DNA of 64,000 nt from assembly GCF_026210795.1 (NCBI RefSeq), contig NC_089430.1, positions 1,240,001-1,304,000 on the forward strand. Reading direction: 5' to 3'. The notes beneath the pieces are model-generated. The model was not told the DNA's origin, did no database searches, and saw only the letters and a program-made list of their open reading frames with translations. Origin of the DNA: Rhizophagus irregularis (Eukaryota; Glomeromycota; Glomeromycetes; Glomerales; Glomeraceae). Positions 3,084 through 53,443 of this stretch are shown piece after piece (position 1 is the stretch's first letter; the number at the start of each line of letters is the position of its first letter). A program made the position numbers and the translations under genes.

Positions 3084-4405
3084 CACTACTTGGAAAAAAG
3101 TAGGCGGACACCATATTTATTAATTACTCAAAAACGTACATAATAAGTGGGGTCAAAATTTTAAATTTTATTAGTTAAACCATATACAAAACTAATATTT
3201 AGTTGGCCATCCATTATTCTTAATACACGCCTCAACCCTGCGTGGCATACTTTCAATTAAATTAATTAACGTATTATTAGGAATTTGATTCCATTCTTCA
3301 TGTAAAGCACACTCCAATTCTCTCACATTTTTTGCAGGATTGGGACGTTTTCTAATGCGCCTTTCCAGCTCTGACCATAGGTGCTCGATAGGATTTAAGT
3401 CAGGTGACTGACTCGGCCAATTTTCTAAAATTTTAACCTTTTTTGTTTCTATCCATTTTTTAACATTTTTAGCGGTGTGGACAGGGGCGTTATCATCTTG
3501 GAATAAATAACCTCGTCCATTATAATTATTATTAATAAATGGAAGTAAATGTGATTCGAGTATTTGTATATAGTCACGATGGTTCATTTTACCATTAATT
3601 TTTATTAGCGGCCCTAACCCCTTTCCTGAGAAACAACCCCACATCATTACACCTCCACCACCATGTTTTATTGAAGGAACCATGTTTTTAACATTAAACC
3701 TTGTTCCGGGGGTTCTCCAAACACGACCTGGACCATCATTTTTAAATATAGTAAAGCGGCTTTCATCGCTCCAAATAACTGACTTCCATTTTCTAACAGA
3801 CCAGTCTTTCCTTTCAATACACCAGTTTAAACGATTTTCTCTTTGTTTATCATTAAGAAGAGGTTTGAATGCTGGAATACGTGAAAAAATATTAAGTTCA
3901 TGCAAATTTTTCCTTATAGTCTTGGTAGTAACTTGTAGTCCAGTTTTCTCTTGAAAATTATTTTTTATTTGTTCAGCTGATTGACGATTATTTGTTTTGA
4001 CAATTTTTTTTAATGTTTTTTGGTGTTGGCAATTTAAAAGTTTAGGACGACCACTTCGTGGCTGAGTTTCAAGACTTTTTCCTTCACAAAAGATTTGAAT
4101 AGTTCGGTAAACTGCTGTTCTAGAAAAGCCAAGCATTTTAATAATTTTTTGTCTGGTGGCGCCACCTTTAAATAGACCAATAATCTGGTTGCGTTCAGCT
4201 TCCGTTAAATCATACATGGTGCGAAGTAGTACAAAATCCTAATTTGTCGATCACATTTGATGGTTGTCTATAAATGAAATAACAATTACGTCATTGTTTA
4301 TTTATACCATAAACTATCACGTGATAAAATTTCAGCCCAAATTATTATGTACATCTTGGAGTAATTAATAAAATATGACGTCCGCCTACTTTTTTCCAAG
4401 TAGTG
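3084..4405 (-). mobile_element. Complete Tc1-family transposon
   Basis: A 1,322-bp element bounded by perfect 26-bp terminal inverted repeats: 3084-3109 (begins CACTACTTGGAAAAAAGT) and its exact complement at 4380-4405. TA target duplications lie at 3082-3083 and 4406-4407. It holds one uninterrupted transposase gene on the minus strand. Identical ends plus an intact reading frame suggest recent insertion and possible autonomy. Confidence 0.95.
3192..4217 (-). CDS. Tc1-family transposase, intact
   Basis: A single-exon 341-residue protein, the normal length for Tc1 transposases, which cut and paste their own element at TA sites. An N-terminal paired-like helix-turn-helix covers about residues 10-110 (RQKIIKMLGFSRTAVYRTI is the first recognition region). 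The DDE catalytic domain follows: first Asp in VIWSDESRFTIF, second in FQDDNAPVHTAKN, and Glu in SPDLNPIEHLWSELERRIR. I count 35 residues between the second Asp and the Glu. The GGGGVMMWGCFS motif typical of the family is present. The gene occupies most of the element between its inverted repeats, and the ATG lies about 160 bp inside the right end. No stop or frameshift is seen. Confidence 0.96.
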   Translation of the reverse strand: MYDLTEAERNQIIGLFKGGATRQKIIKMLGFSRTAVYRTIQIFCEGKSLETQPRSGRPKLLNCQHQKTLKKIVKTNNRQSAEQIKNNFQEKTGLQVTTKTIRKNLHELNIFSRIPAFKPLLNDKQRENRLNWCIERKDWSVRKWKSVIWSDESRFTIFKNDGPGRVWRTPGTRFNVKNMVPSIKHGGGGVMMWGCFSGKGLGPLIKINGKMNHRDYIQILESHLLPFINNNYNGRGYLFQDDNAPVHTAKNVKKWIETKKVKILENWPSQSPDLNPIEHLWSELERRIRKRPNPAKNVRELECALHEEWNQIPNNTLINLIESMPRRVEACIKNNGWPTKY

Positions 4406-8106: not shown

Positions 8107-9381
8107 TTATGGTCGATCATTTCTATAATTAGCAAAATCTGTTGTCCATTCGTGAAAAGTTCTTGAAAGATCCTTTGCACTTGGTCGATTTGATGGATTT
8201 ACATCTAGACATCTTTTAATTAAATGCACAATTAATTGTGGTACCTTAATATTAAAATTGGGTCTTAGCCCTTCACAGATGTCTATTGCCAAATGTTCAT
8301 CATGATTAATATTTGGATATGGAGGTGTTTCTGAAATTATTTCATACATAATTATGCCAAAACTATAAATCTTTCCTCCTATAATTTCAGGAGCCATATA
8401 AGGTAAAACACCATAAACCTTATTTTCTAATTCCTCATAATTTACCGGTTTACACAATCCCATATCAGTTATACCAATTCCTCTAACAAAACATACTATA
8501 TTCCCAGTATGTAAATCTCGATGAATTAATCCTTTTTCATGAATTCTTTTAATTCCGCTTGCAATATGCATTAATTTACTACATCTTTTTTTCAACTCAC
8601 TAAGTTTAATAAAATTTGGTTTATGCTTTATATTCCTTCTATCCAATGAACTTCTTAAACTTCCATTTTCGGCATATTTCATAACCATTACATAATTATT
8701 TGTACTTGGATCTTGGCTTATCCCATAACATCTGACAATTTCATTCGTTGTATTTCTATCAATTATTTTTACATGTGATGTGATCTATATTAATAAATAA
8801 ATTAATTAGCAAATTAAAACATTTATAGATAAAATTTTAATAATAAATCAAATATATACTTCATCGATAAATTCTGATTTAAGTTTTTGTGATTTTTCTA
8901 AAACTTTTAGAGCCACACATTTATTTGCATTATTTCTTTGCCATCGATGTTTAATTACATTCCAATGTGATATATAGCCATCCTTCCAGCATGCCTTATA
9001 TATTTTTCCAAACCCGCCTTTTGTAATATATTTAACTCCATCATGAAACCTATCATAGGGTATCCACTCTAATAATTGATATTTATTTTTTGCTGATAGT
9101 TGATTGTTTTGAATAAATTTATCAACGTCATCATTATTACTAGCCCAATTACTAAAATTTTGTCGAAATCTATCTGAATTACAAGGCTGACACCAATTCT
9201 GTCCAGTATTTATTTGTTTGCATTTTATGCATATACCAAATTTTCGTGTTCTTAAATTTAAATCACAAGTCTGACACAAGATTGTCGGACCCAAATGTGA
9301 CTTACACAAGAGCGTATTCATTTGTCTACATTCCATACACCTTCCATATTCTTCTTGTTCTTCCACGCTTGATTGATACAT
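8107..9381 (-). CDS. Cys-rich TKL-like protein kinase, probably decaying
   Basis: Two exons, 8860-9381 and 8107-8784, joined in phase 0 over a 75-bp GT-AG intron (8785-8859), give 399 residues. The N-terminus carries CxxC pairs (CMEC, CQTC, CIKC, CQPC; residues 15-67) that may bind zinc. The kinase domain follows: glycine loop KGGFGKIYKA (121-130), lysine in VALKV (159), catalytic loop HRDLHTGN (Asp264), DMG in place of DFG (Asp281), APE (305-307). Two things are odd. Seven residues are missing between APEIIGGK and IYSFG, removing the conserved subdomain IX Asp that the kinase at 51133 keeps (KSDIYS). The frame also ends early, before a still-recognisable C-terminal tail. It belongs to the expanded signalling-kinase family of Glomeromycotina; catalytic activity is doubtful. 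Confidence 0.88.
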
Positions 9382-39779: not shown

Positions 39780-42700
39780 TTATACTTTCTTCAATGAAGC
39801 TGGTTCATGATTTCTTAAACTGTCTTCTACGTAATTAAAATAATTCGCTAATTTGCCCGCATCAGCAGTACTAGTAAATTGACATCGTAGAGCATTTTTG
39901 GATGATGGATTCTGTGGATGATAAGATTGTGCAATCTCTGCCATTTTGTTTAAAGAGTTACTATGTCGATCACTACCAAATAATACCGTATACAGGTATA
40001 ACGGAGAACTGAAATTTTCAAAGATTTTTTTAAAAAATAGGGTCATTAAATGAATTTTAATCTAAAAAAAATAAAAAATAACTAATAAACTAATTACCCT
40101 TTTTCTTTATTTTGTTTACAAATAGCATTAAGTTGATTTGTTGGAGTTCCGCATTCTCTATCAGATAAGAATATAATGACATTTACTCTAAAATAAAATT
40201 ATAAATAAATAAGTTATACAAAATAGTTAATGTATTTAACTTATTCAAATGAACGTACTTTGTAGGATCAAAGTGAGTTTCAATCAAAACTCCGGCTTTC
40301 TGAATTGCACTATCAAAATTTATTAAACCACAAGCTTCGTATTGGAGCATTGAATTTAACAAATCTTTCAGATTTGTTAAATCTTGATATTCAAATGGGA
40401 CTATAGTCTAGATTATATCGATGATTAGAGTATATCTTTTGAATAAATATGAGTTCAAATTTAAATATCATTAAGTGTAAAACAGAATACCTTATGGTTG
40501 AACAAGACTAATGAAATTCTATCAGTCATAGTGGAATTTCTACGTGCATTCATAAATAAGTATACCTATATTAATAGTAAATCTAGTTAACGAAAACTAA
40601 GGTTGGATTGGTTAATTGAATATCATTTAATATTACCGCTTGATAAACTGCGCCAATCCTATTATTATGCTTCTTTGTTAAATCATTATAAATTGGAAAG
40701 TCTTGAATCGGTTTAATATCTTGCTTAGTCATAGAACTTGAATAATCCAAAACAAAGATAATGTGAAAAGGAGTATTTGGTTTTTCACAATTAAAATAAT
40801 GCCCATCTGAAGATACATATCCATAATCATTTGGAGGTTTTGATATTGGGGCATGGAAAAGTTGTAATTCACAAAATGATGATTTAGATTTATGTTTTTT
40901 ATCGGGACATTGATGATCACATTTTGTAAATTCTTGTTGTTCTTGACAAGTATGAGGGTCTAATGTCAAATAAAACAATTTAAATATACATAAAGCATAT
41001 TTATTAGGGGGGTACTGATGAACTTTTTATGTATTTTATACCTTTGAAGCCTGTTCGCTCCCAGAAAAGTTTGTGAGAAATAAAATCTTTTGGCTTATCA
41101 GGATTAGGCGAAACTTTCACTGATTAAAGAATAACAACGGTAATATGTAAATAAGTTCATTTAATGAAAAAAGAATTATAAATTACCATTGATGTGTTGC
41201 ATATCCCGGCTCAGTTCGCAATTTTCATCATTTTGGCAATAATCAATATGGCGATGTCTGCCTAAATCTTTACAAAACTAATACAGAGAAAGAAAATTAA
41301 TATATATTATTATTATTATAAATCTATATTAGTGTAATACTTACTAAATTGCAAAGAACAAACGTTTTTTGATCACTAACTCTTAAATTGTATCAAACAA
41401 ATAGACATTTTAATTAAAACAAAACATCATATTTACTAGATTTTTCCTTAATGATTTATATACTATACCCTGCATATACAAATTCATCTCCTGTGAATTC
41501 AGTTTGTGTCATATTTATACCATGTCTTGTGTCATGAAAATGCGGATGTCCATAAGGTAATGTACACTAATTTCATTTAGTCTTTTTAATATTATATTGT
41601 AATCGACAAAAAATGAAATTATATAATTAAACATAAAATCTTGAGATACATACATAATATTCGCAGAACTGACATTTTTTATCACAATAGTGATCTTCAT
41701 TATGCGTATGTTTTCCAGCATGCTCAAATTCATTCGGAGGAATCATTTTATTACATTTTAATTTCTCACTTAATTGAATATACTATTTTTAATAAATTAT
41801 CAAAGGCTTAAGAGTTAATACATTTTATCATATTATTAACATTATACATTAAAATTGTACCTTTGTATATGTAATAACAGTTCCTTCGACTCTACCCTTA
41901 TAAGTTTCTTCTTGCTTTTTAGGTTCAGTCACCACATTACATATACCATCTTCTTCGCATAATTCACGACATTGATGCTCTTTCCTTTAATCAAAAATAT
42001 TTTTTTAATTAATTAACATTCATTCAGAAAGAAAATAATGAAAATAATTATAAGAGTATAGTACATACCCACAAAAATGATTAACTTGCTGTGAGTCAGA
42101 AAAAGCATGAAAGTGATCATCACTTTGACATCTTTCCTTGCAATCTGGAATTGGACATTGAATTGGACAAGTTGTATTTTCACAACGATGAAAATAATGA
42201 TGTTCTTTATATGATATAGTACATTTATTTGGGCAACGATAATCTCCTTTTGTGTTGTGTATTGATAATGAACAATCTTTTCCACAATAATGATTACGTT
42301 TTGATTGACATAAATGTTCGCCATCATCATGTCCAAATTTCTTAGAACAAAATTTTTGACAGTTAAACTTGCCAATAAGGAAACATGTTTTACCACATAA
42401 ATGAATCATTTTGGCACAAGCATGTTTTCCTTTATGTCCAGCCTTGTGTTTACATTCTGGGGTTGGATTGTCGTTGTGGGCTTCACTAAAGTGACAAGGA
42501 AAATGGCACTTATGATCGGTTAAACAGTCATGATTTTCTTTGTGATCATGATTTTTCACGCATTTCAAACCACATTGATAACATGTTAATCCACACAAAG
42601 TCCATAGACGTGTAAGTTCATCTATTTTTTGATTCAATGCATATCTTCCATCAGTTATGTCACTATTATCTTGTGGAAATTTGGCAGTATTTTGCAAATA

Positions 42701-45700
42701 CCAATTTTTAACACGTGAAGTTCGACGTTTAATAATATCCTTTAAGAATCTATCAAAGTTAGAAAACCATTCATTATCATCAGATGATTCTTTTCGTGAT
42801 TGTTTAGTTGTCTCGAAATGGGTTCTTAAATACTCGGAAAGTTGGATGAAAAATTCATCAACATCATCATTGATATCTGGAAACAATTTAATTGGGTTTC
42901 CATCATTCAAAAAATCAATTGGGCCATAAATTGGTTCTTCAGAATCATGATTCTATTGGAATGAATAGATTAGATACACATATCTCTCATTAAGAGTTAT
43001 ATACGCTATATTCATTATAACAAAAGAGTGTATTTACCACAAGAGGTATAATAACGGGATCTTTTTGCTCTATACCATAAGATACAGCAATTGGAAGTAA
43101 TCTTTTTAAAGTTGCAACACGTATATGTATGAGGTTTTCGTTTAATGAACTCCAATCACATATCTAAATTTCAAGATGTAAAAATTAAAGAAAAAGAATA
43201 CTCATCATTAGACATAGCGCTTACAAACCTTCAATTTAGCCATGATTACTTTCGTATTTTGCAAGAAAGTTTTGGCATTGTCATATTTTGTTTCTTTTCT
43301 ATCTAGCAGCATTTTAATTTTTGATAGCCTTTCAAACCATGCTACGTCATGAAAATCAGGCAAAGCCATAATATTTAATTCATCTCCATACATTTTTGTA
43401 ATAAAATTATCTATTCCTTCCTAAAACCTTAAATTAGCTTTTTTAAAGATATACACTGTTTATATAATTTTTATTTTAATTACCTCTGCAATTAATTTCT
43501 CCAATTTTAATTGAAGCTCGTTAATAATACCATCCTTATCTGCTTTAGGCACGTCTTTAATGATAATACAGAGTCTTACCTGAAAAATAATAATAAATAA
43601 TATGCAATGTTTGGGTTTAAATATTTAATTATATCATAATTATGATTTACCTTTGGATCCGACTCAAATAACTTTACGCCAGCTTGTAAGTTTTGAAACA
43701 TTTTTGCATCTCTATTTATGGTGTATTTATTCTTTTGTAATTAAACAATTTATTGATCATATTAGTAAAAATACAAAGCAAGAGCCAAATAATATAATAC
43801 AACAGTATAATTAATATAATTACTTTATTATAGAGAACAAGATTTGAAACAACTGTATTAAAGAGTGTTAGAAACATATCTAAGAATTTATTAATTGGCA
43901 AAATATAGTTAGATCACGATAAATAAATAGATAATTTGTAGATACACTTTAGCACATGCCTTCTTGTGAAGTTCCTTCAAAAGATCTTAATCCTTCAAAA
44001 TCGAGCGCGACATAAATACATTCTTTTGTATTAACTATAAATATAAAAAGTTAATAAAATGTATTTTGATGGAGTAAAAAAAAAGTTTAAACCCTACCTA
44101 ATGACATCCATACTCCTTCAGTACAACGCTAAAACAAGTTAGTAAATATTTAGAATTAATCAAAAAATTTAAAAAATTTAAAAAGATATACTACATACCT
44201 TACATACTGTTGCTGGCACATCAAATGTAGTTCCAACAAGATGGTTTAACATAAATGATTTTCCACATGATTGTTCACCCATGCTTGAAATAATTTTTAC
44301 TTTTTTATTACTAAAATGCTTGAAGATTCCCTCATACCATCCAAAAGATATGTTTTTTGATATAATTTCTACATGACGACGATCATCTCCAAGTTCAATT
44401 AGATGGTTTTCATCCGAAGATAATCCATCCTTGAGTGGCTGAAATAAGTTGTTTCTTGCTACAGCAATTTGTATAGGAATTAGACAACAAAGTTGAATAA
44501 TCCATTCTCCTAACTGATATTCTGATGAAAATTTCTTTTGAAATTCCACATTTTCAATATCAAGTTCTTGAAAAGTCATAACTGATGTAGAAAATTTCTT
44601 TAATATATTTGCAGGCTTCTTTGTCAAACGCTTTAAATTGTCAAATATTTTAGTAGTATATTTTTCAAATTTCTCGCCATATTTTTCAATGTTGCCGCTT
44701 TCATCAATATCAAGAACTACTTTTAAACTAAGAGGGCGACTTTGTTCAGGATCGATACAGCTATCAATTGGATATTTTTCAAACATTAATTTATAAGGAT
44801 TGATAAGATCATTTGATTTTGTTCTCTGAAGCGCAAGTGAACGATTTCGCTTGTAATGTTGGAAACGATATATCATCTTCTTATGGACCAATAATAAAGA
44901 ATTAAAACATCCATTATTTAAATCGAGTGAGATCAAATGAGTTTGTTGGTTATCGATACAGGAAATTTGAAGAAACTCCAAGAATTTAAAATTTAATGGT
45001 AAATCAATAACTGAAAAATAAAAGAAAATAAATATTAGTAAATTCATAAACTTTTAATAATACAAAAGAAAATTTAAATTATGAACCTTTATTAACAGGA
45101 CCTCCATATTCTCCGGAAAAATAAACGTAAACACGATTTATCTCCTTAATACCATTATTATAGTCACGTTGTTTTTTATCATCAGTAGAAATAATTGAAT
45201 CAAATTCTTCAGATTTATCTTTCAATATTTCTTTCGTAAATGCCACAATATAAGAACCATCTGGGGAACTTAAAACATTCACTAGATTAGACGGAAACTT
45301 ACAATCTACTCGGAATTGAGGATACATGATATTAAAAATACGTGCTCGACCACAATTCTCGACAAAGCAAAGTTTCTCAGTGTCTTTGATGAACAGAAAA
45401 TATTTAATGCTCGGTATATTACTATACCATTGCAATAATTGAATATTTGCATAACATCGATTTAACCTTGATCGATTATCGCCAAAAGAAAATACGTCAA
45501 GCTAATGTTACATTTTTTATATAAAAAATAAATTAGACGAAAAAATGCATTACAAAATTAAAATAAACTAGGGACTTATATCAAATACCTTAACTTCTTT
45601 CGTATTATATATTGCGAGAAGCCCTTTTGGTTCATTAACTGCAATAATAAAATTTTCATCTGTATTCAATAGTTTAAATGGTTTAATAGTCGAATGCGAT

Positions 45701-48662
45701 TTAAAATTTTGTGCTAATTGTCTTGCAGTATTAAAGAATATTTCAATTCTTTTGTTATCTTTATTGTAAAGCATAAGAAGAAATTTACAATTATCAAATT
45801 GAGATATTTTTCTATAATTATAAAAATGATATTAGATATTATTTTTTTCTTAAATATCTTATTTTAAGTTACAAAAATTATTCAAATTCTTACTTAAAGT
45901 CATAGACTTGAGGAATGCGAAATGATGTACCGTATTGATTAAGTAAAATTGGAGATGGGGTATCTACTTTTAATGATGTTTCATAAATCGTTAATTGCAG
46001 TTGATCTGGTTGAAGCTCTTCGATATCATATTCAATCGTGAAAGATTCTTCATTTTCTGAAAAAAATTATATTAAAACCTGATTCGCTAAAAAATTTATT
46101 TAAACAAAATAAACACAATAACAGGCATAAACAATTTACTTTTTACATTTAATAGATATAATCGCATGGAACTACAAAAATGAATAAAATCGTAATAATT
46201 AGTTAATATAAATAAGGGGCAATTATAAAAGAGAACTTAACTCACCCGCCATCTTTATATTTAGTTTCTATTTCATTACATATTTGTCCAAACATATTTT
46301 TCTCAATTATTTTCTTTTCTTCTTCGTATTCTCGCTTTAATTTATTTACTTGATTGTTTTTCCATTTATGATACTCCTCAATAAAAATATTTATAATATT
46401 TTCTCTAATTTCTTCATATCCTTCAAATAATTCATATTCCATGAGTTCATCAATAAATTCTTCATCTGACATTTTACTGGTCATTTGTTCTGCCTTATAA
46501 ATATTCGAAGTTTTAAAAACATTAAAAATACTCCAATTATTTTGTGTATATTTTTCAAGCAATTTGTTTAAGTCAGATTCAATATCAGTGAACATATTAT
46601 AAAAGGTTTCTATTGCGAATTTTTTCGTTTCATCTGTTTCATCTGTATCATCATCATCTTCTGATTCATTTGTTTTCAATATTTTATTAATAACGATGCA
46701 TGATAAATTATATTTTGTTTTCATTTTTTCCCAATTTTCTGAGTCAATTTTAATCATTTTTTTAATTTGATATTCTATTCCAGGATACCTCGTTCGAATT
46801 CTTTCGAGGTCTACATAATCAAATATATATTTAAATATTGTTTTTCAAAGATTGTAATGATTGACATTATATTTACCCGTATCGCTAATGTTTGTTCGTG
46901 ATAGACAATTATCCCGAATAATATATTTATCAAAAATACTATATATATATATCATACATAGAAATTTATTTAATGATAACATAAATACATATATAAATTT
47001 TAAAGCAAATATTAATTCATATACGCACCTTTCAAAATCATGTAGTTTTATTATTGCCATTTTTTGAATGATTTCGATATCTTTAACGGTAGAAATTGCG
47101 TCATACAGTGGAGTTAAAGATTCTTCCATTCCTAATCCGTGTTTAATAAACAATTCTAGTGCATATATATCCATCTTATTACGATCAATACGTAAATATC
47201 GACCTTGCAGTTTTGTTTTAAGATGATTTGGAAATTTTTCTACAGAAACTCGCGCAAGGACAATCTTTGAATGCCTAATTCCCTTTATCAATTGTCGAGT
47301 GACGAATGATTGATTTGTAGTAGATTCAACAACTAAAAATAAAATGGATATTTTTAACATTTATTAATAATGCAAGCTCAACTTAAGTCAATTTAAAGCG
47401 TACCTATTGGATATAACGGGATGTCACCTTCATTTTGATTATTAATTTCGGTCTTAATGTTATTTGGCAAATTCACCTTCATAAGATAAAATTATTATAT
47501 AAATTATTGTTGACTTTTAAGTTATATAAGATATTTATTTTAAAAAAAAATAAAACCTTAAAGCCGTTATCAATATTAAAATCTTCCTTTTCTTCTTGAC
47601 TTCTTTTTACTGTAAACTCGTAATCTAAATCATCTGAATCATCTGAATCATCTGTATCATCAATTTTGCCTAAGTTTAAGCCTTTCAAATCTTCATCGCT
47701 CATTAAACAGATCTGATGATCGGTGAGTTTTGTTAAATATCTGATTAAAAATTCAAATGAGTAATTAATTATAAAAACCCTAAATTTTCAACTCAAAAAG
47801 AAAGAATCAGCACCTATGTAAATTAACCATATTCCTTTTAATCTGGAAAGGAGTAATTAAATAATTTTCATAGCATCCAATTTCAGGCCAATGAATAATT
47901 AAACCAAAATTAGAATTCACTTTTAAAAAGTAAATTCCTGGAAGTAGCAAGTTGGAAGTTGTGAGCAATTTATACCTGTAAGAAAAAATTTAGATTAACT
48001 ATTTTTCGTATATAATAATATTATTACAACGAAAGAAATTTTATATTTACAATTGTTGATCAATTATATTTTTATTCAACAAGAGTTTTGCGATCAAAAT
48101 GCGATTTCCATAACATCCAATAAGACGAAATGAGATTGAATTTAATTCCGAGTAATTAATTTCAGAAATAGATTTGAAACTTGATTGGACCATATCATTG
48201 CATAGCTTCCCTAAATATTCCTTGGAAATAATTATCTTGTCCACTTTAAGATATTAAACATAATGAAAATTAATGTTGCTTTACAGAATGTTCCAGTAAT
48301 TTGACCTTAACTAAATTTACCAATTCCGCTTGATTCAATATCATTACATAAATCCAACAATCGGTACAATCCATTAATACAATTAGCTAAGTCGCTTGAA
48401 TCTTCAGTCGTCAAGTCATCCGTATCCTCTTGAACCTCTAAAGAAAGAGTTACAAATAATTAAAGAAAGTACAAATTTGTCATTCGGATAAATTGCACAC
48501 CACATGATTATTGCTTATTTCATTAAGCAAGAAAATATTGAACTTAAAAGCATACAAATAAATAAATAAAATATTTTATGCACCATTAGAATCGTTAGAA
48601 ACTTGTTCAAAATCACAATTTTGCATGATGCGTTGCGAAAATTTTAAATATTCTAGAGACAT
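39780..48662 (-). CDS. Giant GTPase with zinc-binding region and VWA domain
   Basis: I could join 33 exons (first 48584-48662, last 39780-40008) with every phase closing, giving 2,115 residues. Residues ~570-900 are WD/propeller-like. The GTPase domain has P-loop GEQSCGKS (about 1102-1109), RCTEGVW, DFEG (about 1150-1153) and IIIKDV, as in GB1/VLIG-type large GTPases. Residues ~1467-1810 hold many CxxxC/HxxxC groups (LCGKTC, HLCQSK, CPNKC, CPIQC), zinc-binding in an NF-X1-like way. The VWA domain (about 1890-2100) has an intact metal site, DYSSS, then a conserved SDRECGTP. All introns are GT-AG except 43880-43959, which needs a GC donor (AAG|GCATGT). No stop or shift is seen. The same architecture exists in other fungi (from memory). 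Role unknown; membrane remodelling or defence would be by analogy with animal large GTPases only. Confidence 0.9.
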
Positions 48663-51132: not shown

Positions 51133-53443
51133 ATGTCTGTTATACGAGAGGAACTAATTAATGTGGCAATTAGTAGAGCGATTGCATTAATAGATTATAA
51201 TATTCATAATGATATAGACAAACAACATGAATTTATACAACAAACGGTCCTTGCTGATAAATCTTTTACAAATGATGAAAAAAATGAAGCAATAAGAAGA
51301 ATAATTAAAATTGTTGATAAAAATAAAGTTCTTTTTAATAAAGGGACAAGAAGAATTTGTGAAAATTGTAACCAAGAATGTTTAGCCATATCATATTGTG
51401 AATATTGTGTTCGAAATTATTTAAAATTAAATTTTTTAAATTGGACATCTGGAAATAATGATATTGATAATTTAATACAAAAATGTCAAATGGAAACAAT
51501 TGAACCAGAAAAAATAATTGAATGGATTCCATATGATAATTTGCAAAATATTAAATATCTAACAAAAGGTGGATTCTCGGAAATTTACACAGCAGTTTGG
51601 AATGGTGGAAGATATGATGAATTGGATACTATGAAGCAGCAATTAACAAGATTGGGAAATCAAAGAGTAATACTTAAAAGATTAGAAAATGTTGAAAGTG
51701 CAGATCAAAGTTGGTTTGAAGAGGTTTGTAACCTAATGAATCAGTAATTGATAATTATCTTATTAGTGATAAATTAATTAATAATTCTTTTTTTTTTTAT
51801 AGGCAAAATCACATTTAACTATAAGCAATAAACATCCAAATATTGTCCGATGTTATGGCTTAACACAAGATCCATCAAATGAAAATTACATGCTTGTAAT
51901 AGATATAATGGATTTAAATTTAAGAGAATATTTACAGAAAAACTATAATCAACTTACATGGAAAAGAAAAATTCAATTCGCTTATTACATAACTACTGCA
52001 CTCAATGAAGTTCATGATGAAAATGCAATCCATAGAGATTTACATTCTGGTAATATATTATTCAAAGAAATTAATCAAAGATTCTTTATTAGTGATCTTG
52101 GATTTTGTGGTCCTGCAGACAAATCATCAAAAAGTATATATGGAAATCTTCCTTATATAGCACCTGAGGTTATTGCTGGAAAAGAATATACTTTTAAATC
52201 TGATATTTACAGTATTGCAATGCTTATGTGGGAAATTTCATCTGGAAAACCACCTTTTAATAATTATGAGCATGATTATTATCTTGCAATGAATATAATT
52301 AATGGTATAAGACCAAGAATAGTATCAGGAACTCCTTTAGAATACAAAAATTTAATGAAACAATGTTGGGAGGCTGATCCATTGAAAAGACCTGACATTG
52401 AAACACTTCGGAAAAAAATAAAAGAAATTTATAAAAAATATCTGAATATGCCAAATGAATTAGAAGAAAATAACAATTTAAAAATAAATGAAACAGATAG
52501 CTTAGAAGAATCAAAAGAAACAAGCAGCATATTATTTACAAGTAGCAAACTTCATAATTTTGAAAATTTTCCTGAACCAAGGAATGCAACAGAAGGTATG
52601 TTATCACATATTAGATACTAATTCAATTACTAATAATTAATATAATATATTTTATTTTTTATTTTTATTTAAAAAACAACAGAAGAACAAGAAGGTATAA
52701 ATTGAACCATTTTTTATACCAAATTTATTTACAGGTTGTTAACTATTTTTATAAATTTTTAGCATTTCATAGCAAATCTTATGATGAATTTTATATCCCT
52801 AATAGCAGTAAGTATTTATTAAATTTGAATTTACAATAAATTTTTTATAGTAGAGCTTTTTAATTAATTTTATTTTTGATTTTTTAGTTAATGATTTTGC
52901 CAAATCAAGTAGTAGTAAGAATAACAGTATGTCAAAAAAAATAAGCAGTATTTTTAAAGGTAATTATTAAATTTATTTTATAAATTACATATTAGCGAAA
53001 GAATATTAATTATATATTCAAAAATTTATTGTAGTTAATAGTAAAAAATTTTCCAAAATGTTTAAAAAATTGCAAATAAAAAATGGTGAGTAAAATATTT
53101 AATATAACATACTAATCATGTTTTATTAAGTACGATTTATTTAATTATTTATTTAGATTCTCGAGAAGATTATAATAATAAAGAAACAATGAAGCATCAT
53201 TCTTGTATTGATGGTATGGTAAAATTTGCTTTTATATAAATAACATAACAGATAATAATGATTTATGTTCTTATTTTATAGATGAAGATGAAGTACATAA
53301 TAATCCAAATCTTCATTCAGAAGAACAAGATGAATTAGAAATTCCTGATGGTAAAGAAAAATTTTCTAAATGATGATATTTTAGATATTATTTATTCTTT
53401 AAATCTAATTTGTTGATTTTTTTTTAATTTTTTAGATATTTAG
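51133..53443 (+). CDS. Cys-rich TKL-like protein kinase with mini-exon tail
   Basis: Nine exons: 51133-51723, 51803-52595, 52683-52694, 52763-52807, 52888-52959, 53035-53085, 53157-53213, 53282-53350, 53436-53443; 565 residues. The N-terminus (1-75) is helical, then CENC...CEYC (76-92) and WIPYDNLQNIKYLTKGG. Kinase signatures are KGGFSEIYTAVW (145-156), RVILKRL (Lys182), HRDLHSGN (Asp276), SDLGF (Asp295) in place of DFG, APEV, and KSDIYS with the subdomain IX Asp. All key residues are present, so it is probably active. The tail carries ENFPEPRNATE, then Ser/Lys-rich and acidic segments encoded by seven tiny exons; intron 1 is phase 0 and all seven later introns are phase 1. Skipping any mini-exon keeps the frame. 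If intron 2 is retained, the protein ends at 52621. Confidence 0.88.

What the first reader, a model, noticed from the sequence alone, without database searches (positions are those of the whole stretch)
39780..48662. A 2,115-residue GTPase-zinc-VWA protein encoded by 33 exons
Manual threading gives one continuous frame over 8.9 kb with a propeller-like N-half, a GB1/VLIG-like GTPase (GEQSCGKS, RCTEGVW, DFEG), a Cys/His-rich zinc region and a VWA domain with an intact metal site. The G domain resembles the large interferon-inducible GTPases of animals, while the zinc and VWA parts point to ubiquitin-like or adhesion functions. Its job in fungi is, as far as I know, undescribed. Seen: motifs and junctions. 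Known: large-GTPase and VWA families. Inferred: a membrane or defence role.
Basis: partly seen in the sequence, partly recalled or inferred. Interest (0 to 1): 0.75.

Follow-up and report, generated by a model that had tools for sequence, protein, structure and literature searches.

The report
Giant fungal GTPase-zinc-VWA gene family
A symbiotic soil fungus carries a family of about 14 giant genes whose core is related to the interferon-induced very large GTPases of animals, with a zinc-rich region and often a VWA domain added; the copy in this window has an open reading frame but shows signs of loosened constraint.

Summary
The gene is real. An independent splice model gives 33 exons and 2,112 residues (reader: 33 and 2,115). 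Against the nearest paralogue, 29 of 31 exon indels are multiples of three, 8 of 49 in introns. The G domain is a large GTPase closest to Pfam's URGCP/VLIG model (E 2e-11, below that cut-off); it passes the GBP cut-off. Two long VLIG-type ORFs of the same genome share the G region and the CxxxCxxCGxxC module that opens this gene's zinc region, so I read it as a derived VLIG with added zinc modules and a VWA domain. Searches find 14 loci (8 in one array) plus a relic. The VWA domain is complete in 7 of 14; two copies have lost the P-loop.

Corrections: the VWA metal site here is not intact (MIDAS Thr is Ile); the 'propeller' has no support; this copy has evolved near-neutrally since it split from its sister.

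Best reading: a cytosolic, GTP-driven oligomerising scaffold, perhaps for cell-autonomous defence or self/non-self control. The function is inferred. The genome matches a published Rhizophagus irregularis DAOM197198 assembly in scaffold number and nearly in size. Ten full-text searches listed no description.

The parts
39780..48662 (-). whole gene, 33 exons, 2,112 aa (CDS limits)
   Evidence: in-frame indel test against paralogue L005
47331..48662 (-). N-terminal region aa 1-270, seen only in this family in the genome search; acidic stretch within aa 206-245
   Evidence: the 45 matches listed fall in the same 14 loci
44514..47330 (-). middle region aa 271-1023, no recognised domain; the 'propeller' is not supported
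44457..44513 (-). conserved hydrophobic segment LGEWIIQLCCLIPIQIAVA, aa 1024-1042
   Evidence: mean hydropathy 1.75
43235..44405 (-). VLIG/GBP-like G domain, about aa 1060-1300
44256..44279 (-). P-loop GEQSCGKS, aa 1102-1109
44114..44128 (-). RCTEG (switch I region; RCTRG in the VLIG-type ORFs L018 and L022), aa 1126-1130
43991..44002 (-). DFEG, aa 1147-1150
42485..42595 (-). first Cys module, aa 1464-1500, collinear with the C-terminal Cys module of VLIG-type ORFs of the same genome
41212..42595 (-). Cys/His-rich zinc-type region, aa 1464-1790
   Evidence: (55 Cys/His invariant in the 4 members aligned, counted from its list)
39819..40777 (-). VWA domain, aa 1886-2100, DYSSS at 40733-40747
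40321..40323 (-). codon of aa 1986: Ile where the MIDAS Thr is expected

Best explanation
A fungal multi-copy GTPase derived from the VLIG/URGCP branch of the GBP/VLIG large GTPases. Shown by sequence: one gene, a large-GTPase G domain, a Cys module collinear with the C-terminal module of VLIG-type ORFs in the same genome, an extended zinc-type array, a C-terminal VWA domain, 14 loci with a tandem array, loss of the VWA domain on several branches, and G-site loss in some copies. Inferred mechanism: the protein is cytosolic; GTP binding drives G-domain dimerisation and assembly of large oligomers; the zinc-rich array and the VWA domain bind partners or targets and are the exchangeable part. Inferred role: cell-autonomous defence or self/non-self control in a coenocytic fungus that can host viruses and endobacteria. 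This particular copy has an open frame but looks relaxed, possibly on its way to loss.
For: G domain: URGCP_GTPase E 2.2e-11 in the window and matched by 6 of 6 members scanned; GBP above its cut-off; GBP structures found by profile. BLASTP to the VLIG-type ORF L018: 34% over 136 columns, E 2e-13; L018 carries URGCP_GTPase 3.9e-65 and URGCP 7e-21. Cys module: window against L018 z 5.9 and against L022 z 7.8, 0 of 1000 shuffles reach either, and for window and L018 it is the best-scoring place in each protein. Family: 14 loci by three queries; the G-exon query gives the same 14 and a relic. VWA complete in 7 of 14, linker only in 2, nothing detected in 5. P-loop lost in L010 and L013. Dynamin-superfamily proteins with volatile copy number and a proposed antiviral link occur in fungi (MxF; passages of PMC11789081).
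Against: The URGCP score is below Pfam's curated cut-off (43.5 against 55 bits) and the N-terminal URGCP domain was not found. The Cys-module match is weak in the most divergent member L017 (z 2.0 and 2.6; 51 and 23 of 1000 shuffles) and borderline for L005 against L018 (11 of 1000). GTP binding, zinc binding, oligomerisation, location, expression and any defence phenotype are untested. The window branch has N:S 107:36, not distinguishable from neutral, so this copy may have no function. Repeated domain loss also fits plain relaxation without an arms race; pairwise Ka/Ks is below 1.
Confidence: 0.5

Rival explanations
1. The family matters but the window copy is a relaxed or decaying duplicate whose frame has not yet been broken.
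For: Window branch N:S 107:36 (omega 0.77-1.06 for kappa 1-3) against 60:40 on the L005 branch (0.39-0.54), Fisher p 0.017; G domain 23:5 against 3:6, p 0.011. 50 private changes at positions conserved in the outgroup copies compared, against 28 in L005. MIDAS Thr to Ile, one GC donor. VWA Ka/Ks to L005 1.06.
Against: No internal stop in the 2,112-codon model; P-loop, RCTEG and DFEG intact; overall pairwise Ka/Ks to L005 0.63 (bootstrap 0.52-0.80) and to L006 0.43 (0.37-0.50). L005, the better constrained branch, itself shows an in-frame stop and a 1-base indel. Rapid change can also be adaptive.
Confidence: 0.4
2. A zinc-dependent ubiquitin ligase built on a large GTPase, in the manner of RNF112.
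For: Dense conserved Cys/His array; RNF112 is reported as a dynamin-superfamily member (PMC12012479, title and start of abstract in the listing only; that it carries a RING is recalled).
Against: No zinc-finger family in Pfam at E up to 1 for 4 of 4 members scanned; no PDB match at E up to 10.
Confidence: 0.12
3. A housekeeping membrane-remodelling GTPase (Sey1/atlastin-like) with a large adaptor tail.
For: RHD3 profile 6.5e-9, SEY1 in the PDB list at E 0.007, a conserved hydrophobic segment before the G domain.
Against: URGCP scores higher; the six most hydrophobic 19-residue windows lie at aa 139 and 1023-1029, none at the C-terminus; 14 copies, 8 of them in an array, with the VWA incomplete or absent in half.
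Confidence: 0.12
4. The model is an artefact of threading, or two adjacent genes.
For: Thirty-two short introns in A+T-rich DNA can be threaded in many ways; several junctions are weak; substitution rates by codon position differ little.
Against: Indel periodicity, shared intron positions and the same order of N-terminal, G and zinc parts in 14 loci.
Confidence: 0.03

Closest known systems
VLIG/GVIN/URGCP very large GTPases (Pfam PF25683, PF25496); here the ORFs L018 (C1:5945279) and L022 (C14:3103990) of the same genome
   Same: G domain around the P-loop, RCT-G motif, and a CxxxCxxCGxxC..H..H module C-terminal of it
   Different: 33 exons where L018 and L022 are single long ORFs; no URGCP domain hit; URGCP_GTPase below cut-off; many added Cys/His modules and a VWA; P-loop to Cys-module distance 362 against about 790 residues in L018
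GBP guanylate-binding proteins (PF02263); one search lists 17 matches in the same genome, one of them the VLIG-type ORF L018
   Same: P-loop to switch II and the following stretch align with GBP1/GBP2; above the GBP cut-off
   Different: RCTEG instead of the HTKG of GBPs in the alignments; no GBP C-terminal family found; about 3.6 times as long as the 592-residue chains
Fungal Mx-like MxF proteins (PMC11789081, passages seen)
   Same: dynamin-superfamily GTPases of fungi with volatile copy number and a proposed immune role
   Different: a different G-domain branch without zinc or VWA part (recalled; not compared here)
RNF112 (PMC12012479, listing only)
   Same: large GTPase joined to a zinc-binding domain (RING recalled)
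   Different: the zinc region here matches no Pfam zinc-finger model

Membership tests
VLIG/URGCP-like GTPases | URGCP_GTPase domain above Pfam's curated cut-off | tested here: not met
   43.5 bits against 55; E 2.2e-11
VLIG/URGCP-like GTPases | URGCP domain N-terminal to the G domain | tested here: not met
   no hit in the full protein at E up to 1 (first model); present in L018
VLIG/URGCP-like GTPases | C-terminal Cys module as in the VLIG-type ORFs of this genome | tested here: met
   z 5.9 and 7.8 for the window, collinear; weak for L017. That this module defines VLIGs in general is recalled
VLIG/URGCP-like GTPases | GTP-dependent oligomerisation | not testable with these tools
   needs protein
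GBP/RHD3-type large GTPase class | P-loop GxxxxGK[ST], switch I Thr, DxxG | tested here: met
   GEQSCGKS, RCTEG, DFEG
GBP/RHD3-type large GTPase class | profile match to the class | tested here: met
   GBP 27.3 bits against 21.1; RHD3 36.0 against 42.4, below its cut-off; PDB GBPs
GBP/RHD3-type large GTPase class | G4 RD motif | tested here: inconclusive
   IIIKDVP is the candidate (KD, not RD; the RD motif is recalled)
VWA domain | profile match | tested here: met
   VWA_2 29.4 against 27 bits; VWA 19.0 against 23.8, below its cut-off
VWA domain | complete MIDAS (DxSxS, Thr, Asp) | tested here: not met
   Thr is Ile at aa 1986 in the window; Thr in L005, L006, L008, L009 and L012, Asn in L017; the MIDAS pattern is recalled, the column is fixed by the profile alignment to anthrax toxin receptor 2
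Known zinc-finger families | Pfam zinc-finger match | tested here: not met
   none in 4 of 4 members scanned
Beta-propeller | WD40 or other propeller profile | tested here: not met
   (3 members); the fold itself was not predicted

The most novel reading that the evidence does not exclude
A fungal immune or incompatibility system built from VLIG-type GTPases: a tandem, changing family in which the zinc array and a dispensable VWA 'bait' read foreign or non-self molecules and the GTPase drives an oligomeric response, with P-loop-dead copies acting as partners or decoys. With the GBP-type and VLIG-type genes of the same genome, this fungus would hold counterparts of two animal interferon-induced GTPase families.
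Probability: 0.22. Interest if true: 0.8.

Novelty: new variant of a known kind. Interest (0 to 1): 0.52.

Why it matters
Very large GTPases are best known from vertebrate interferon responses (recalled). A mycorrhizal fungus that holds VLIG-type ORFs, GBP-type matches and a derived VLIG-zinc-VWA family gives a place to ask what this class does without interferon. It also names candidate genes for how coenocytic symbionts cope with viruses, endobacteria and foreign nuclei.

Tried and rejected
Propeller in the N-half: no Pfam family and no PDB propeller match (the best PDB hit, E 0.0068, is a designed TIM barrel over 37 positions); not excluded as a fold. AlphaFold2 of the single zinc exon without an alignment: mean pLDDT 37.7, not used. 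Relatives in prokaryote genomes and viral contigs: none; these scans are pattern-based, so distant relatives can be missed, and no other fungal genomes were at hand. Ten paper searches listed no description of this family; listings are capped and most subscription papers are not held. A first VWA scan gave 0 hits everywhere because of a wrong option and was redone. Positive selection is not claimed: pairwise Ka/Ks is below 1 overall.

Left out of counts: Ka/Ks was computed for 2 of 13 paralogues; the branch test used L005 with L006 as outgroup and left 150 differing codons unresolved (122 N, 28 S) outside the comparison. Profiles were built from 3-6 of 14 members. The tree used automatic models over 1,107 columns; L012 has an insert near the P-loop and its model is poor.
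Full report
What was checked. The window lies at G000:C2:1240001-1304000 of a genome of 146,748,485 bases in 32 contigs. This matches in scaffold number, and within 25 kb in size, the published 32-scaffold assembly of Rhizophagus irregularis DAOM197198 (146,773,001 bp; passages of PMC10234402).

The gene. A splice-site and codon programme without homology found 33 exons on the minus strand ending at 39780. Alignment with paralogues corrected several junctions; the final model has 33 exons, 6,339 nt and 2,112 aa with one terminal stop. The frame is supported by the indel pattern against the nearest copy L005: 29 of 31 exon indels are multiples of three, 8 of 49 in introns, p 3.5e-12. The two exceptions are a 10-base indel near the start codon, so the first few residues are uncertain, and a 1-base indel in exon 7; L005 also shows an in-frame stop, so L005 may be damaged. 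Substitution rates by codon position (0.082, 0.067, 0.085) hardly differ from introns (0.075); the indels, not the substitutions, carry the coding evidence. In the control run the gene stretch scores 456, its opposite strand 7.3, and 18 other stretch/strand combinations 4.4-282. Paralogue models share 17-26 of 32 intron positions in phase within two columns. One intron has a GC donor; the paralogues L008, L009 and L011 have GT there.

Anatomy. Aa 1-270 form a region seen only in this family (query from residue ~40 on: 45 matches listed, all in the 14 loci). Aa 271-1023 match nothing known. Aa 1024-1042 are a conserved hydrophobic segment. The G domain follows, then a Cys/His-rich region of 327 residues with 36 Cys and 32 His, of which 55 Cys/His are invariant in the 4 members aligned (counted from its list), then the VWA domain.

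G domain. On the corrected splice the window's G region scores URGCP_GTPase 2.2e-11 (43.5 bits, cut-off 55), RHD3_GTPase 6.5e-9 (36.0, cut-off 42.4) and GBP 2.6e-6 (27.3, cut-off 21.1). URGCP and RHD3 match 6 of 6 members scanned, GBP 5 of 6. Against the PDB, a profile of these 6 finds GBP2 and GBP1 at about 4e-5 and SEY1 at 0.007. This places the P-loop inside the large GTPase class and nearest to VLIG.

The link to VLIG. The same genome has strong URGCP_GTPase matches: 8 listed, 4 of them in open frames of 763-1,559 residues. L018 carries both Pfam VLIG domains and aligns with the window at 34% over 136 columns. Its C-terminus holds CTEACYRCGALCWGSRDHH, and L022 has nearly the same. The family's zinc region opens with CGLTCYQCGLKCVKNHDHK. 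In Smith-Waterman tests with shuffled segments the window scores z 5.9 (L018) and 7.8 (L022); scanning window against L018, this is the best-scoring place in each. Of 12 member/target pairs, 9 were reached by 0 of 1000 shuffles; L005-L018 (11), L017-L018 (51) and L017-L022 (23) were not as clean. Two collinear landmarks make descent from a VLIG-type gene the best reading. Formal membership is not claimed, because the URGCP cut-off and the URGCP domain were not met.

The family. The zinc-exon query, the N-terminal query and a query from the most divergent member give the same 14 loci: 8 on C14 (zinc exons between 3,992,817 and 4,085,867, 93 kb), and one each on C2 (window), C11, C25, C10, C20 and C6. 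The G-exon query gives these 14 and a stop-riddled relic at C2:5411486. All such counts are lower bounds by the tool's own note. The VWA domain is complete in 7 of 14 (window, L005, L006, L008, L009, L012, L017), reduced to the linker in L010 and L011, and undetected in L007, L013, L014, L015 and L016 within the 1.9-2.3 kb held downstream of the zinc region. On the tree these fall into five places (L007; L011; L014 with L015; L010 with L013; L016), so loss looks repeated, if the root and models are right. L010 and L013 lack the P-loop GK[ST] with its Gly; L010, L011, L013 and L016 depart from DFEG.

State of the window copy. Against L005, Ka 0.074, Ks 0.117, ratio 0.63 (0.52-0.80), with the VWA part at 1.06; against L006 the ratio is 0.43 (0.37-0.50). 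Split by branch with L006 as outgroup, the window has 107 non-synonymous and 36 synonymous codon changes, L005 60 and 40, with 150 unresolved. The window is not distinguishable from neutral, L005 is below it, and the two differ at p 0.017. Private window changes at conserved places include two beside RCTEG (S1123P, M1125T). The VWA metal-site Thr is Ile; it is not in the list, where several of the copies compared have no VWA. So the frame is open but constraint seems to have slackened in this copy; a paralogue with intact P-loop and MIDAS, such as L008 or L009, would be the better one to study.

Mechanism. From established knowledge of GBP, VLIG and Mx proteins (recalled, with passages on fungal MxF in PMC11789081, and on GBPs in PMC5758549), large GTPases of this class work by nucleotide-driven dimerisation and assembly on targets. 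The conserved P-loop, switch motifs and zinc array fit such a scaffold. The step to defence or self/non-self control rests on array formation, copy number and repeated loss of one module, and is inference. Fungal immunity genes of other kinds are reported to respond to mycorrhiza formation and endobacteria in Gigaspora (passage of PMC10197012).

Novelty. None of the listings of ten paper searches described this family. It may well have automatic database names; those databases were not available here. It is a new variant of a known kind.

Noticed in passing
G000:C28:1797273-1862746, C24:2722222-2749731, C9:4831677-4844794, C15:3344082, C18:3462752, C22:2874843-2927193: GBP-type GTPase matches: 17 PF02263 matches over cut-off, many in clusters; one of the 17 is the VLIG-type ORF L018, and several have stops or are short exons.
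   Followed up: no
G000:C25:2034126-2283166 (L019 holds one): Partial URGCP_GTPase matches in what look like multi-exon genes, different from the family studied here.
   Followed up: partly
G000:C2:5411486-5412110 (L021): Degenerate relic of the family with several stops.
   Followed up: partly
L001-L004 and G000:C2:2605797-2633832: Other VWA genes, some in a small cluster, that look like VIT-VWA proteins (by eye, recalled); no zinc or GTPase part seen in the ORFs of L001-L004.
   Followed up: partly
window 51803-52618 and 8110-8784: ORFs that look like protein kinase genes (by eye).
   Followed up: no
window 3195-4238 (-): ORF of 348 aa with a helix-turn-helix start like Tc1/mariner transposases (by eye).
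   Followed up: no
L008, L009, L010, L011, L017, in the stretch before the G domain: About 60 extra residues, absent from the window-type copies, that read like a small beta barrel (by eye).
   Followed up: no
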